The notes under the pieces were generated by a model. The model was not told the DNA's origin, searched no databases, and saw only the letters and a list, made by a program, of their open reading frames with translations. DNA of 64,000 nucleotides from Ottowia testudinis (GTDB taxonomy: Bacteria; Pseudomonadota; Gammaproteobacteria; Burkholderiales; Burkholderiaceae_C), in assembly GCF_017498525.1 (NCBI RefSeq), contig NZ_CP071796.1:1116001-1180000 (forward strand), given 5' to 3'. The translations under genes were made by a program, and so were the position numbers. Below, piece after piece: positions 8,790-13,579 of this stretch (the stretch's first letter is position 1; every line of letters starts with the position of its first letter).

Positions 8790-10592
8790 ATGCCGACCGA
8801 GACAAGCATCCAGATTCACCCACGCCGCCCACGCCACCAGCTCAAAGGCCGCCAGCCCACCGGCGCCGCCCGCGCCGAGGTGCGGGCGCTGATCGGCGCG
8901 CCGCCCGCCGAGGGCCACCGGCGCGACCGGCTGATCGAACACCTGCACGCGCTGAACGACCACCACGGCGGCCTGTTCGAGCGCCACCTGGTGGCGCTGG
9001 CGGCCGAGATGCGCCTGTCAATGGCCGAGGTGTATGAGGTGGCGAGCTTCTACCACCACTTCGAGGTGCTGCGGGACGATGCCGTGGCGCCCCGTCTGAC
9101 GGTGCGCGTGTGCCAGTCCTTGAGTTGCCAGCTGGCGGGCGCCGAGGCGCTGCTGGCGCGTTTGCCCGCGCTGCTGGGCGCCGGCGTCAAGGTGGTGGCC
9201 GCGCCCTGCCTCGGCCGCTGCGAGCAGGCACCGGCGGCGCTGGTGGGGCAGCGCGCGCTGGGGCAGGCCACGGCGGACGCCATCGTTTCAATGTCAAATC
9301 GGCCTCTGGCGCAGGTGGGGAAAGCGCAAGCAGCTCCTGAAGTCATAGCGTTCGAGCGCTACCGCGCGGCTGGTGGTTATGCACTGGCGCAGGCGGTGGC
9401 GCGCGGCGAGCGCGATGCCGAAGGCGTGATCACCGCGCTGGAGCACGCCGGCTTGCGCGGGCTGGGCGGCGCGGGCTTTCCGGCCGGGCGCAAGTGGCGC
9501 ATCGTGCGCGGGTTTGCAGCGCGCGCCGCCGAGCGCCGGGCCGCCCCCAGCGAGGCGACGGCCCCCTCGGGGGGCAGCGCAACACGCGAAGCGGTGGAGC
9601 GTGGGGGCGCGTTGATGGCAGTCAACATCGACGAAGGCGAGCCGGGCACCTTCAAGGACCGTTTCTATCTGGAGCGCGACCCGCACCGCTTTCTGGAAGG
9701 CATGCTCATCGCCGCGCACGTCGTGGGCTGCGAGGCCGTCTACCTCTACCTGCGCGATGAATACCCCGAATGCCGCGCCATCCTGACCCAGGCCATTTTT
9801 GACCTGCAAGCCGCACCAGAACTGCGCGGGCAGCTCCCAGAAATAGAGCTGCGGCGCGGCGCCGGCGCCTACATCTGCGGCGAGGAGTCGGCCATGATCG
9901 AGTCGATCGAAGGCAAACGCGGCGAGCCGCGCCTGCGCCCGCCCTACATCGCCGAAGTCGGCCTGTTCGGCCGTCCGACGCTGGAGCACAACTTCGAGAC
10001 GCTGTATTGGGTGCGCGACATCCTTGAAAAAGGCCCCGAGTGGTTTGCCAGCCAGGGGCGCCACGGCCGCCAGGGCCTGCGCAGTTTCAGCGTCAGCGGG
10101 CGGGTCAAGCAGCCCGGCGTCAAGCTGGCGCCGGCCGGCATCACGCTGCGCGAGTTGGTCGATGAGTACTGCGGCGGCATGGCCGACGGGCACGAGCTGT
10201 ATGCCTACCTGCCCGGCGGCGCGTCGGGCGGCATCTTTCCGGCCAGTCTGGCCAATGTGCCGCTGGATTTCGACACGCTGCAGCTGCACGGGGGTTTCAT
10301 CGGCAGTGCCGCCGTCATCGTGCTGAGCGACCAAGACAAGGCGCGCGATGCGGCGCTGAACATGATGCGTTTCTTCGCCGACGAGAGCTGCGGCCAGTGC
10401 ACGCCTTGCCGCGTGGGCACCGTGAAGTCGGCGCAGCTGATGGCGGCGCCGGTGTGGGATCTGGAGACCTTGAACGACCTCGCCACGGTGATGGTCGACG
10501 CCTCGATCTGCGGGCTGGGCCAGGCAGCGCCCAACCCCATGCGCTGCGTGCAGCGGTATTTCGCGCATGAAGTGCAGGAGCGGCGGCCATGA
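8790..10592 (+). CDS. fdsB: NAD-dependent formate dehydrogenase, fused gamma/beta (NuoE-NuoF-like) subunit
   Basis: 600 aa fusion. Residues 1-165 are a NuoE-like [2Fe-2S] domain with CQSLSC near residue 108 and CLGRC near 141. A linker follows, then a NuoF-like domain with GLGGAGFPAGRKW (near 225, FMN/NADH), GAYICGEESAM and ESCGQCTPC (near 532, [4Fe-4S]). This is the diaphorase half of a soluble formate dehydrogenase that reduces NAD+. The stop overlaps the fdsA start as ATGA. Two sections look like repeat DNA that became coding: the linker (9291-9350) and a loop at about residues 250-273 (9540-9609). Confidence 0.9.
   Translation: MPTETSIQIHPRRPRHQLKGRQPTGAARAEVRALIGAPPAEGHRRDRLIEHLHALNDHHGGLFERHLVALAAEMRLSMAEVYEVASFYHHFEVLRDDAVAPRLTVRVCQSLSCQLAGAEALLARLPALLGAGVKVVAAPCLGRCEQAPAALVGQRALGQATADAIVSMSNRPLAQVGKAQAAPEVIAFERYRAAGGYALAQAVARGERDAEGVITALEHAGLRGLGGAGFPAGRKWRIVRGFAARAAERRAAPSEATAPSGGSATREAVERGGALMAVNIDEGEPGTFKDRFYLERDPHRFLEGMLIAAHVVGCEAVYLYLRDEYPECRAILTQAIFDLQAAPELRGQLPEIELRRGAGAYICGEESAMIESIEGKRGEPRLRPPYIAEVGLFGRPTLEHNFETLYWVRDILEKGPEWFASQGRHGRQGLRSFSVSGRVKQPGVKLAPAGITLRELVDEYCGGMADGHELYAYLPGGASGGIFPASLANVPLDFDTLQLHGGFIGSAAVIVLSDQDKARDAALNMMRFFADESCGQCTPCRVGTVKSAQLMAAPVWDLETLNDLATVMVDASICGLGQAAPNPMRCVQRYFAHEVQERRP
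9291..9350. repeat. Comamonad hairpin repeat read in frame within fdsB linker
   Basis: tcaaatcggcctctggcgca followed by gcgcaagcagctcctgaagtcatag corresponds to the reverse orientation of the dispersed element. It encodes the linker between the NuoE-like and NuoF-like halves. Confidence 0.6.
9540..9609. repeat. G/C-rich repeat inserted in frame in fdsB
   Basis: Contains the hairpin gccccctcggggggc (9561-9575) bounded by ccgcccccag and gtgggggcg. This resembles a 'cctcggggggcagcgca' intergenic repeat I associate with comamonad genomes. It encodes a low-complexity loop (PSEATAPSGGSATREAVERGG) not expected in NuoF-like proteins. Confidence 0.6.
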
Positions 10593-13579
10593 GTGCAGTT
10601 TTCAAGCCAAATCAGCCTTCGGTGCTTGTGCAGCAAGCGCGGGCAGCTATCGAATTTGAACTGGACGGACGTGTCGTACAAGCGCAGGGGGGCGAGACCA
10701 TCCTGCAGGCCGCCGAGCGCCACGGCGTCGCGATTCCTCGCCTCTGTTACACCGACGGCCTGCGTGCCGACGGCAACTGCCGCGCCTGCGTGGTCGAGAT
10801 CGAGGGCGAGCCCACGCTGGCGCCCAGCTGCTGCCGCGCCGTGCAGCCGGGGATGAAAGTGAAGGCGAGCAGCGAACGCGCGCGCAAGTCGCAAGACCTG
10901 GTGCTGGAGCTGCTGTTGGCGGAGCTGCCGGACGAGGGCTTCAAGTGGAACGACGCCGATATGTCTCCTTCCCCCGCTGGGGGAAGGCCGGGATGGGGGC
11001 TAGCCACGGTTGATGGGAATGCGGCGCTGGCCCCCACCCCAGCCCTCCCCCAATGGGGGAGGGAGCAAGAGGTCGGCCCGCACGGCGAACTCACCCAATG
11101 GGCCGCGCAGCGCAGCATCCACGTGCGCGAAGCGCTTCAAAATTTGCAGCGCGAGCAGCCCGCCGCCGACCTCAGCCACCCCGCCATGGCCGTCAACCTG
11201 TCGGCGTGCATCCAGTGCACGCGCTGCGTGCGCGCCTGCCGCGAGGCGCAGGTCAACGACGTGATCGGCTACGCCGGCCGAGGCAGCCACGCGCGCATCG
11301 TGTTCGATCTGGATGACGCCATGGGCGCCAGCAGCTGCGTGGCCTGCGGCGAATGCGTGCAGGCCTGCCCGACCGGCGCGCTGATGCCCAAAACGCACAT
11401 CGGCCCGCAAAAGGTCGACCGCAGCGTCGATTCGGTCTGCCCGTTCTGCGGCGTCGGCTGCCAGATCACCTACCACGTGCGCGACGAGCAGATCGTCAGC
11501 GTCAGCGGCCGCAACGGGCCGGCCAACGCAGGGCGGCTGTGCGTCAAGGGGCGCTTCGGCTTTGATTACGTGGCCAGCCCCGATCGCCTGACGGTGCCGC
11601 TGATCCGCCGCGCCGATGCGCCGAAGGACGTGGCGCACTGCGAAACGCACCCCGACTGGCGCCGCGTGTTCCGCGAGGCGACTTGGGACGAAGCACTCGA
11701 CCTGGCCGCCGGCCGACTCAATGCCCTCAAGGCGCGGCATGGCCCCAAGTCGCTGGCCGGCTTTGGCAGCGCCAAGGGCAGCAACGAAGAGGCCTACCTG
11801 TTCCAAAAACTGGTGCGCACCGGCTTTGGCAGCAACAACGTCGACCACTGCACGCGTCTGTGCCATGCGTCCAGCGTGGCGGCGCTGCTGGAAGGGGTGG
11901 GCTCGGGCGCCGTGAGCAACCCGGTCAGCGATGTGGCGCATGCCGAGTTGATCTTCATCATCGGCTCCAACCCCACGGCCAACCACCCGGTGGCCGCCAC
12001 GTGGATGAAGAACGCCGCCCAGCGCGGCGCCAAGATCGTGCTGGCCGACCCGCGCATCACCGACATCGCGCGCCACGCCTGGCGCGTGCTGCCCTTCAAG
12101 CCGGGCGCCGACGTGGCCATGCTCAACGCCCTGCTGCACGTGATCGTGAACGAGGGGTTGTGCGACGAGGCGTTCATCCGCGATCGCGCCGACAACTTCG
12201 CCGCGCTGGCGGCCAACGTGCAGGGCTACAGCCCCGAGGCGATGGCGCCGATCTGCGGCATCGCCGCCGACACGCTGCGCGAGGTGGCGCGTGCCTACGC
12301 CACCGCCAGGTCGGCCATCATCCTGTGGGGCATGGGCGTGAGCCAGCACGTGCACGGCACCGACAACGTAAGGGGCCTGATCGCGCTGGCCACCTGCACC
12401 GGCCAGATCGGCCGCCCCGGCACCGGCTTGCACCCGCTGCGCGGCCAGAACAATGTGCAGGGCGCCAGCGACGCGGGGCTGATCCCCATGATGTTTCCCA
12501 ACTACCAGCGGGTGGACAACGGCGCCGCGCACGCTTGGTTCGAGGATTTCTGGGGTACGACGCTGGACGATGAGCCCGGTTACACCGTGGTCGAGATCAT
12601 GCACAAGGCGCTGGCGCCCGAGAGCGATCCGCACAAAGTACGCGGCATGGTCATCATGGGCGAAAACCCAGCCATGAGCGACCCCGACCTGAACCACGCG
12701 CGCCACGCGCTGGCCTCGCTGCGACACCTGGTGGTGCAGGACATCTTCCTGACCGAAACCGCCTGGCTGGCCGACGTGGTGCTGCCCGCGTCGGCCTGGC
12801 CCGAAAAGACGGGCACCGTGAGCAACACGGATCGCATGGTGCAACTGGGGCAGCAAGCGCTGACGCCGCCGGGCGAGGCACGGGCCGACCTGTGGATCAT
12901 CCAGCAGCTGGCGCAGCGCATGGGTTTGGGTTGGAGCTACGAAAATGATAGCTGCTCGCGCACGTTGGACAAGCGCCAGAGCCAAAATTCGTCTGAAACC
13001 TATCATGGGGTGGCGCAGGTGTACGACGAAATGCGGCGCGCCATGCACGGCGCCATCGCCGGCATCACCTGGGAGCGCTTGCAGCGCGAGGGCAGCGTGA
13101 CCTACCCGTGTCTCAGCGCCGACGACCCCGGCCAGCCGGTCGTCTTCACCGACGGCGTGCCGACGAAAAACGGCAAGGTGCAACTGGTGCCCGCCGACAT
13201 CATCCCGCCCGACGAGCTGCCCGACGCCGATTACCCCATGGTGCTGATCACCGGCCGACAGCTCGAACACTGGCACACCGGCGCCATGACGCGCCGCGCC
13301 AGCGTGCTCGACGCGCTGGAACCCGCGCCGACCGTGTCGATGCACGGCCATGACCTGGCGCGGCTCGGCCTGCAGGCGGGCGGCACGGCGCGCGTGCAGT
13401 CGCGCCGGGGCGAGGTCGAGCTGATGGTGCGCCGCGACGACGGCACGCCGCCCGGCAGCATCTTCATCCCGTTCGCCTACCGCGAGGCGGCCGCCAACCT
13501 GCTGACCAACGCCGCGCTTGATCCGTTCGGCAAGATCCCGGAGTTCAAGTACTGCGCGGTGCGGGTGGCTCCGGCTTGA
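10589..13579 (+). CDS. fdsA: NAD-dependent formate dehydrogenase alpha subunit (molybdenum, Cys type)
   Basis: 996 aa catalytic subunit oxidising formate to CO2. In order: a plant-type [2Fe-2S] domain (CYTDGLRADGNCRACV), a His-Cys region, two [4Fe-4S] motifs (CIQCTRCVRAC, CVACGECVQAC), a further cluster motif CPFCGVGC, then the bis-MGD catalytic domain. The likely Mo-ligand Cys is in NVDHCTRLCHAS near residue 421. The C-terminal molydopterin-binding domain has TGRQLEHWHTGAMTRR. The start overlaps fdsGB. It is longer than usual because of a repeat-derived insert at about residues 125-160 and another near 785-800. No fdsC or fdsD is adjacent; fdhD lies 4 kb on. Confidence 0.93.
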   Translation: MSAVFKPNQPSVLVQQARAAIEFELDGRVVQAQGGETILQAAERHGVAIPRLCYTDGLRADGNCRACVVEIEGEPTLAPSCCRAVQPGMKVKASSERARKSQDLVLELLLAELPDEGFKWNDADMSPSPAGGRPGWGLATVDGNAALAPTPALPQWGREQEVGPHGELTQWAAQRSIHVREALQNLQREQPAADLSHPAMAVNLSACIQCTRCVRACREAQVNDVIGYAGRGSHARIVFDLDDAMGASSCVACGECVQACPTGALMPKTHIGPQKVDRSVDSVCPFCGVGCQITYHVRDEQIVSVSGRNGPANAGRLCVKGRFGFDYVASPDRLTVPLIRRADAPKDVAHCETHPDWRRVFREATWDEALDLAAGRLNALKARHGPKSLAGFGSAKGSNEEAYLFQKLVRTGFGSNNVDHCTRLCHASSVAALLEGVGSGAVSNPVSDVAHAELIFIIGSNPTANHPVAATWMKNAAQRGAKIVLADPRITDIARHAWRVLPFKPGADVAMLNALLHVIVNEGLCDEAFIRDRADNFAALAANVQGYSPEAMAPICGIAADTLREVARAYATARSAIILWGMGVSQHVHGTDNVRGLIALATCTGQIGRPGTGLHPLRGQNNVQGASDAGLIPMMFPNYQRVDNGAAHAWFEDFWGTTLDDEPGYTVVEIMHKALAPESDPHKVRGMVIMGENPAMSDPDLNHARHALASLRHLVVQDIFLTETAWLADVVLPASAWPEKTGTVSNTDRMVQLGQQALTPPGEARADLWIIQQLAQRMGLGWSYENDSCSRTLDKRQSQNSSETYHGVAQVYDEMRRAMHGAIAGITWERLQREGSVTYPCLSADDPGQPVVFTDGVPTKNGKVQLVPADIIPPDELPDADYPMVLITGRQLEHWHTGAMTRRASVLDALEPAPTVSMHGHDLARLGLQAGGTARVQSRRGEVELMVRRDDGTPPGSIFIPFAYREAAANLLTNAALDPFGKIPEFKYCAVRVAPA
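10598..10659. repeat. Comamonad hairpin repeat forming the 5' end of fdsA
   Basis: tttcaagccaaatcagcctt, then gcttgtgcagcaagcgcggg and cagctatcgaatttgaa: the element in reverse orientation. It encodes residues 4-24 of FdsA, just before the conserved ferredoxin domain. Confidence 0.65.
10963..11067. repeat. Palindromic repeat inserted in frame in fdsA
   Basis: tctccttcccccgctggggg at one end and ccctcccccaatgggggagg at the other form matching hairpins with a spacer. This is the type of 'ccctcccc..ggggaggg' intergenic repeat seen in many proteobacteria. It encodes about 35 low-complexity residues (SPSPAGGRPGWG ... TPALPQWGRE) between conserved parts of FdsA. Confidence 0.7.
12941..12992. repeat. 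Comamonad hairpin repeat read in frame within fdsA
   Basis: gaaaatgatagctgctcgcg, cacgttggacaagcgccaga, gccaaaatt: a clear copy in forward orientation inside the coding sequence (protein ENDSCSRTLDKRQSQNS). It lies between conserved catalytic-domain segments. Confidence 0.7.

What the first reader, a model, noticed from the sequence alone, without database searches (positions are those of the whole stretch)
9291..12992. Formate dehydrogenase genes carry at least five repeat-derived peptide segments
Within fdsGB and fdsA, hairpin elements at 9291-9350, 10598-10659 and 12941-12992, a C/G-rich repeat at 9540-9609 and a palindromic repeat at 10963-11067 are all read in frame, adding low-complexity peptides while cluster and active-site motifs stay intact. 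Intergenic repeats may be entering coding regions at permissive loops.
Basis: partly seen in the sequence, partly recalled or inferred. Interest (0 to 1): 0.65.

Follow-up and report, generated by a model that had tools for sequence, protein, structure and literature searches.

The report
Dispersed repeats captured inside formate dehydrogenase
Short DNA repeats that litter this bacterium's chromosome have landed inside its formate dehydrogenase genes without breaking the reading frame, at a few loop and linker positions, and related bacteria have filled the same positions with other repeats; similar intragenic repeats are known from Rickettsia and from REP-rich genomes.

Summary
Confirmed and extended. 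FdsGB (8790-10592) and FdsA (10589-13579) contain copies of three unrelated dispersed repeat families, read in frame. Family A (three copies) has 104 copies in a 464-kb sample of this genome, roughly 970 per genome. Family B (one copy) has 8 other matches below 1e-9. Family C is an inverted doublet; of 15 sampled copies only the two in fdsA have coding sequence on both sides. Decoys gave nothing at E<=0.01.

Orthologues show three clean additions: B +28 aa, C +36 aa, A at 12937 +17 aa. At 9291 and 10598 family A forms a linker and the FdsA N-terminus with little net gain. Cluster cysteines are invariant.

Across 119 orthologous loci the same loops are empty or hold A, B, C or other additions, many untraced. 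In four other genomes tested, the insert matched that genome's own repeats, three clearly. Family A also sits in frame in MetH and UvrA.

Best reading: in-frame capture of dispersed repeats, filtered by selection for tolerant positions, as with Rickettsia palindromic elements and intragenic REPs. What moves them is unknown.

The parts
8790..10592 (+). fdsGB, fused FdsG-FdsB (diaphorase) subunit of an NAD-dependent formate dehydrogenase, 600 aa
   Evidence: ORF; Pfam 2Fe-2S_thioredx, Complex1_51K, SLBB, NADH_4Fe-4S; best solved relative MeFDH1 beta; model pLDDT 85.0 matches 8j83_B, Z 42.1, rmsd 2.2, 524 aligned
10589..13579 (+). fdsA, catalytic subunit, 996 aa
   Evidence: ORF; Pfam Fer2_4, Molybdop_Fe4S4, Molybdopterin, Molydop_binding; best solved relative MeFDH1 alpha
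9295..9347 (+). family A element with a degraded hairpin, read in frame as part of the linker between the FdsG and FdsB parts (residues 169-186)
   Evidence: profile 37.0 bits; own-genome DNA search 35 matches including itself, 40 of 236 candidates scored; A sequence at the same linker in other genera; no clean net length gain
9535..9613 (+). family B element inserted in FdsGB (residues 249-275), net +84 nt
   Evidence: 59.4 bits; 9 own-genome matches below 1e-9 including itself; empty site 62 nt against 146 nt
10606..10660 (+). family A element forming FdsA residues 7-24 just after the start codon
   Evidence: 46.8 bits; residues 7-24; A hits there also in four other same-genus loci, two of them weak or partial; other genus members have a different N-terminus
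10965..11000 (-). family C element, left half of an inverted doublet, FdsA residues 126-138
   Evidence: 35.9 bits; mapping
11030..11065 (+). family C element, right half of the doublet, FdsA residues 148-159; the loop is +36 aa over the 12-aa baseline
   Evidence: 30.7 bits; mapping; loop lengths
12937..12989 (-). family A element in FdsA loop 2 (residues 783-801), net +17 aa
   Evidence: 41.9 bits; mapping; loop lengths; gap against MeFDH1 in the PDB alignment

Best explanation
The segments are copies of three unrelated families of short dispersed repeats that entered the fds genes and survived where they kept the frame, had no stop and fell in linkers or loops that tolerate extra residues. 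Shown: repeat identity, in-frame reading, empty orthologous sites, occupation of the same loops by different families in other genera, other genes hit by family A. Inferred: insertion from elsewhere in the genome followed by purifying selection; later decay and replacement that turn an insert into ordinary linker; that the loops are exposed. The peptide itself is most likely neutral ballast. Not known: what moves the elements.
For: Copy numbers and decoys. Orthologous empty sites. 26 of 120 FdsA sequences (119 loci plus window; one genome is there as two fragments) carry at least one A/B/C hit at E<=0.01 inside FdsA, 51 hits in all (17 A, 6 B, 28 C), in a few zones (N-terminus 7-24, 122-160, 351-356, 656-657, 778-807) apart from one weak hit at 173-187 and two L038 hits whose place is unsure. 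Parsimony on one quick 118-row FdsA tree built without the loops: at least 21 changes insert/none at loop 1, 7 at loop 2, 7 or 8 at the B site. Same process elsewhere: MetH carries the A insert at one site in 9 of the 18 genus sequences extracted, all in frame (96 nt in 8, 105 in one), while three have a 45-nt form; the PDB alignment shows the 17-aa gap; two A copies (29.8 and 26.1 bits) in UvrA, in stretches where the solved relative is shorter. A copies labelled non-coding are not more open than shuffles (0.46 against 0.444), so the frame seems kept by selection, not by design.
Against: At 9291 and 10598, and in NadD (L075), A sequence is read in frame with little or no net length gain, so simple insertion does not explain every case. 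Several other genera share A at the 9291 linker in the same orientation, as one old insertion would. Family B at FdsGB 249-275 has exactly +84 nt in five loci (window, L034, L039, L040 and the diverged L032), which could also mean one old insertion plus losses or allele exchange. 22 of 118 rows have loop-1 additions and 10 have loop-2 additions that match none of A, B or C; of these only two were traced (L187 and L046), and L046 (G107) has just one strong and one weak other match. No target duplication was recognised by eye. Gene calls for A copies rest on a home-made Markov caller; 7 of its 18 in-frame copies score under 30 bits. The linker copy is modelled with fair confidence (pLDDT 71-86), so it need not be floppy.
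Confidence: 0.85

Rival explanations
1. The segments are original protein sequence; the repeat-like DNA is chance or low-complexity GC-rich coding sequence.
For: The linker at 159-196 of FdsGB varies in length in all genera, so part of it may be native; NadD aligns without a large gap.
Against: Decoys give nothing at E<=0.01; many copies elsewhere; at three sites most orthologues lack the segments.
Confidence: 0.03
2. The inserts were each gained once long ago and now spread or vanish by homologous recombination of fds alleles between species, not by fresh insertion.
For: Patchy B site within one genus and in Acidovorax with the same net length; A in loop 2 and in MetH shared by several genus members; A in the FdsGB linker shared by several genera.
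Against: Different families and orientations fill the same loop, and in three of four other genomes tested the insert clearly matches that genome's own repeats.
Confidence: 0.2
3. The inserts are kept because they help, for instance an mRNA hairpin that pauses ribosomes between domains or a flexible linker for electron-transfer subunits.
For: Several lie between Pfam domains, and the same positions are refilled in several lineages.
Against: Most orthologues have 12-15 aa at the FdsGB and loop-2 sites; both orientations and several frames occur, so no common peptide; no compensatory pairs in 45 aligned A copies.
Confidence: 0.08

Closest known systems
Rickettsia palindromic elements (RPEs) inserted in frame in protein genes (Ogata et al. 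2000, 2002; not read, known here only as described in passages of PMC10969869 and PMC3733652)
   Same: Short dispersed palindromic repeats read in frame inside conserved enzymes, tolerated by the protein.
   Different: Comamonadaceae and relatives rather than Rickettsia; profiles of about 36-81 bases instead of about 150 bp (length as given in PMC10969869); shared sequence with RPEs was not tested; several unrelated families use the same loops.
Intragenic GTAG- and CGTC-tagged REPs (PMC3733652; passages and section 15 read)
   Same: Mostly intergenic palindromic repeats, some single or doublet copies inside ORFs, including double insertions in uvrA of O. terrae and Thioalkalivibrio, as family A seems to show in UvrA here; that paper also notes different REPs at about the same site of recB in two Xanthomonas species.
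   Different: Where the end could be located (42 of 45 copies), family A has ATAG in 21 and GTAG in 3; the paper's main text has no occurrence of Comamonadaceae, Acidovorax, Delftia or Burkholderia.
REPIN/BIME doublets and MITEs in general (names recalled)
   Same: Family C occurs as inverted doublets with a 28-29 base spacer.
   Different: No terminal inverted repeat or transposase link was established for A, B or C.

Membership tests
Rickettsia palindromic element (RPE) | In-frame insertion in genes for conserved proteins at function-compatible sites | tested here: met
   In-frame copies in FdsA, FdsGB, MetH, UvrA; that the proteins work is inferred from conserved motifs, not assayed
Rickettsia palindromic element (RPE) | Sequence membership in one of the RPE families | not tested
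   No RPE sequence was fetched
GTAG/CGTC REP | GTAG or CGTC tetranucleotide at one end of the palindrome | tested here: not met
   Family A only, one end, GTAG only: of 42 copies with a located end (of 45), ATAG 21, GTAG 3, other 13, none 5. CGTC and families B and C were not tested
GTAG/CGTC REP | Association with a RAYT tyrosine transposase flanked by the repeat | tested here: inconclusive
   Y1_Tnp genes exist; A copies within 6-6.5 kb around three candidates are about as dense as elsewhere
MITE | Terminal inverted repeats and target-site duplication | tested here: inconclusive
   Occupied and empty sites compared by eye at the B site and in MetH; no clear duplication
Structured RNA element | Covariation in a conserved stem | tested here: not met
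   Four predicted pairs in 45 A copies, none with changes on both sides (the stem is nearly invariant, so this is weak); no Rfam match at 9291-12992

The most novel reading that the evidence does not exclude
Particular protein loops act as recurrent landing pads: several unrelated repeat families of Burkholderiales enter the same few codons again and again (FdsA 122-160 and 783-807, FdsGB 249-275), with fixed net sizes, because insertion itself is directed there or because replaceable spacer cassettes are under selection.
Probability: 0.12. Interest if true: 0.75.

Novelty: new member of a known kind. Interest (0 to 1): 0.52.

Why it matters
In-frame repeat capture is best known from Rickettsia and from scattered REP cases. 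Here it is seen across a large bacterial family, and one enzyme offers a natural series: same loops, with and without inserts, filled by unrelated repeats in related species. That makes it possible to measure how dispersed repeats become protein sequence, and gives a map of insertion-tolerant sites in a formate dehydrogenase of biotechnological interest. It also warns that such peptides in databases can be repeat-derived.

Tried and rejected
Covariation of family A as an RNA: only four near-invariant pairs. Rfam: no match at the element sites. The idea that A is built to be translated: open-frame fraction about that of shuffles. RAYT association: not shown. FdsA structure prediction: mean pLDDT only 63.6; the inserts (1-17, 115-165, 787-804) are low but so are native stretches such as 190-228, 237-266, 411-442 and 618-642, so it is weak support. 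Literature: searches listed nothing on these families in Comamonadaceae; (a nine-letter motif) returned 278 papers of which only 20 were listed, all unrelated by title, so it says little. PMC186582 is not held. A first B model was built from copies in mixed orientation; it was redone and its decoys re-run and printed. In one search the loop-2 state of L035 was wrongly taken as empty (its ORF ends at 764) and was set to C from L036 of the same genome. Rows dropped for the tree: 118 of 120 kept, 116 different; 40 of its 113 inner branches have support under 80; the B site was scored on 113 rows, with L032 counted as filled by length alone in one of the two counts. L138, L172 and L038 were given their loop-1 labels by peptide pattern. 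For MetH, matches came from 26 of 29 genomes but only 18 sequences passed the motif search, and G012's A hit is weak (14.5 bits).

Full report
What is there. The window holds FdsGB at 8790-10592 and FdsA at 10589-13579, both open and with the expected Pfam domains. The closest solved relatives are the MeFDH1 subunits. In alignments of the window with 53 and 54 orthologues, cysteines that by general knowledge bind the iron-sulphur clusters (FdsA C53, C64, C67, C81, C207, C210, C213, C217, C250, C253, C256, C260, C284, C287, C291, C318; FdsGB C108, C113, C140, C144, C534, C537, C540, C574) and the HCTRLCHASS stretch at 420-429 are invariant.

The repeats. Profile searches in 464 kb of the own genome (window and 20 evenly spaced stretches) give 104 non-overlapping copies of family A at E<=1e-3, about 970 per genome by extrapolation. 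Reversed and Markov decoys give nothing at E<=0.01 for A, B or C. The family A profile has 53-56 positions around a conserved core GCGCTTG-n-CAAGCGC and AGCAGCTAT. Family B has 9 matches below 1e-9 in the whole genome, itself included, but no second copy in the sample. Family C has 15 hits in the sample: 8 with both flanks mainly non-coding, 5 with one flank mainly coding, and the two of fdsA with coding on both sides. The fdsA pair has the layout of doublets elsewhere: minus then plus, spacer 29 (window), 29 (L072) and 28 (L074). Family A is found in 57 of 150 genomes of the family (51 of 126 genera), with at most 32 copies scored per genome.

Clean additions. Three sites are plain inserts. 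FdsGB 236-278 is 15 aa in 103 of 115 rows and 43 in the window; at DNA level the empty site is 62 nt and the filled one 146 nt. FdsA 119-166 is 12 aa in 55 of 120 rows and 48 in the window; FdsA 780-808 is 12 aa in 94 of 120 rows and 29 in the window. Two sites are not plain additions: the FdsG-FdsB linker (9295-9347) has no fixed length (over 159-196 it is 61 aa in 24 of 115 rows and 38 aa, the window's length, in 14), and at the FdsA N-terminus the element sits in place of the MNAP-type start of many orthologues.

The same loops elsewhere. A, B and C models gave 51 hits (17, 6 and 28) inside FdsA across 119 loci and the window, in 26 of 120 sequences. They fall in five zones, apart from one weak hit at 173-187 (L034) and two L038 hits whose mapping is unsure because that ORF starts in loop 1. 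Family A lies in loop 1 of Acidovorax and of G038 and G112; C in loop 1 of the window's genus, of Variovorax sp. CF079, a Polaromonas MAG and G062; loop 2 holds A or C in the window's genus, C in G071, B in a Curvibacter and a Rhodoferax MAG. B also occurs at 656-657 and 778 in four loci and C at 351-356 in one. In FdsGB, B occupies 249-275 in the window, L031, L034, L039, L040, L197 and L172, with a fragment in L195, and A lies in the 169-187 linker in several genera. In all, 22 rows have untyped additions in loop 1 and 10 in loop 2; apart from the two just named these were not traced. On a quick 118-row tree built without these columns, loop 1 needs at least 22 changes among none/A/C/other (21 for insert or none), loop 2 11 (7), the B site 7 or 8. 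Parsimony cannot tell gain from loss, and 40 of 113 inner branches are weak.

Other genes. A home-made Markov gene caller puts 18 of 104 A copies in frame inside genes, 3 in one frame but with a stop, 3 between frames, 13 intergenic, 40 with one coding flank, 26 mixed and 1 between convergent genes; 7 of the 18 score under 30 bits. Reading frames used: antisense phase 1 seven times, sense 0 five, antisense 0 four, two others once each. Checked cases: MetH, where solved MetH lacks the insert (17-aa gap) and, among 18 genus sequences extracted, nine have the A insert at one site (one weak, G012), three have a 45-nt form and six have other lengths; UvrA, where two A copies lie in stretches longer than in the solved relative. 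NadD is a counter-example: the element peptide aligns without a large gap. Ten such proteins each gave Pfam families at E<=1e-5.

Mechanism. Best supported: dispersed repeats insert, and selection keeps those that leave the frame open and fall in tolerant positions. A copies labelled non-coding are not unusually open (0.46 against 0.444 for shuffles; 67 copies), so nothing suggests a design for translation. Origin outside genes is inferred from copy distribution and from empty sites. The mover is unknown; Y1-type transposase genes exist but show no clear link to A.

Known or new. PMC10969869 (passages) and PMC3733652 (passages and section 15) describe RPEs and REPs inside ORFs, among them double insertions in uvrA genes and REPs at about the same site of recB in two Xanthomonas species. 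So the kind is known. The searches, which cover open-licence papers only, listed no description of these families in Comamonadaceae. What stands out is the repeated filling of the same enzyme loops by unrelated families across genera.

Limits. The FdsA model is poor, so exposure of its loops is inferred. The FdsGB model is good (mean 85.0); it is low at 251-270 (63 and 50) in the B insert, but also at 1-20 and 361-390, and the A linker reaches 71-86. Two genus members have frameshifts at the B site, which may be assembly errors.

Noticed in passing
L071:17887-19998: UvrA with two in-frame family A copies (29.8 and 26.1 bits); PMC3733652 reports double REP insertions in uvrA of other bacteria, a striking parallel.
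   Followed up: partly
L031 (G026) and L038 (G001), FdsGB around residue 244: L031 has one extra base in a C run inside the B element, L038 lacks one base at the empty site, so both FdsGB frames break; the L038 FdsA ORF also starts only in loop 1. Real variation or assembly error is open.
   Followed up: partly
L030 FdsA loop 2; L197 FdsGB B site: Signs of nesting or replacement: L197 has about 30 extra bases at the B element, and L030 has a C element where other genus members have A.
   Followed up: partly
G000:C1:1415347-1415676 and 2448231-2448554 (L209, L210): Two proteins that look like REP-associated transposases (recognised from memory, below the Y1_Tnp cut-off); A copies nearby only at about background density.
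   Followed up: partly
G000:C1:149685-149841 and 2916351-2916503: Family B occurs as tandem pairs at two places.
   Followed up: no
L187:4807-4977: Ramlibacter rhizophilus FdsA loop 1 carries a further repeat family, none of A, B or C, with 62 match rows elsewhere in its genome.
   Followed up: yes
L133, L138, L140, L197 and L041, FdsGB linker: Acidovorax-group FdsGB linkers carry family A in the same orientation as the window, perhaps one old insertion now turned into linker.
   Followed up: no
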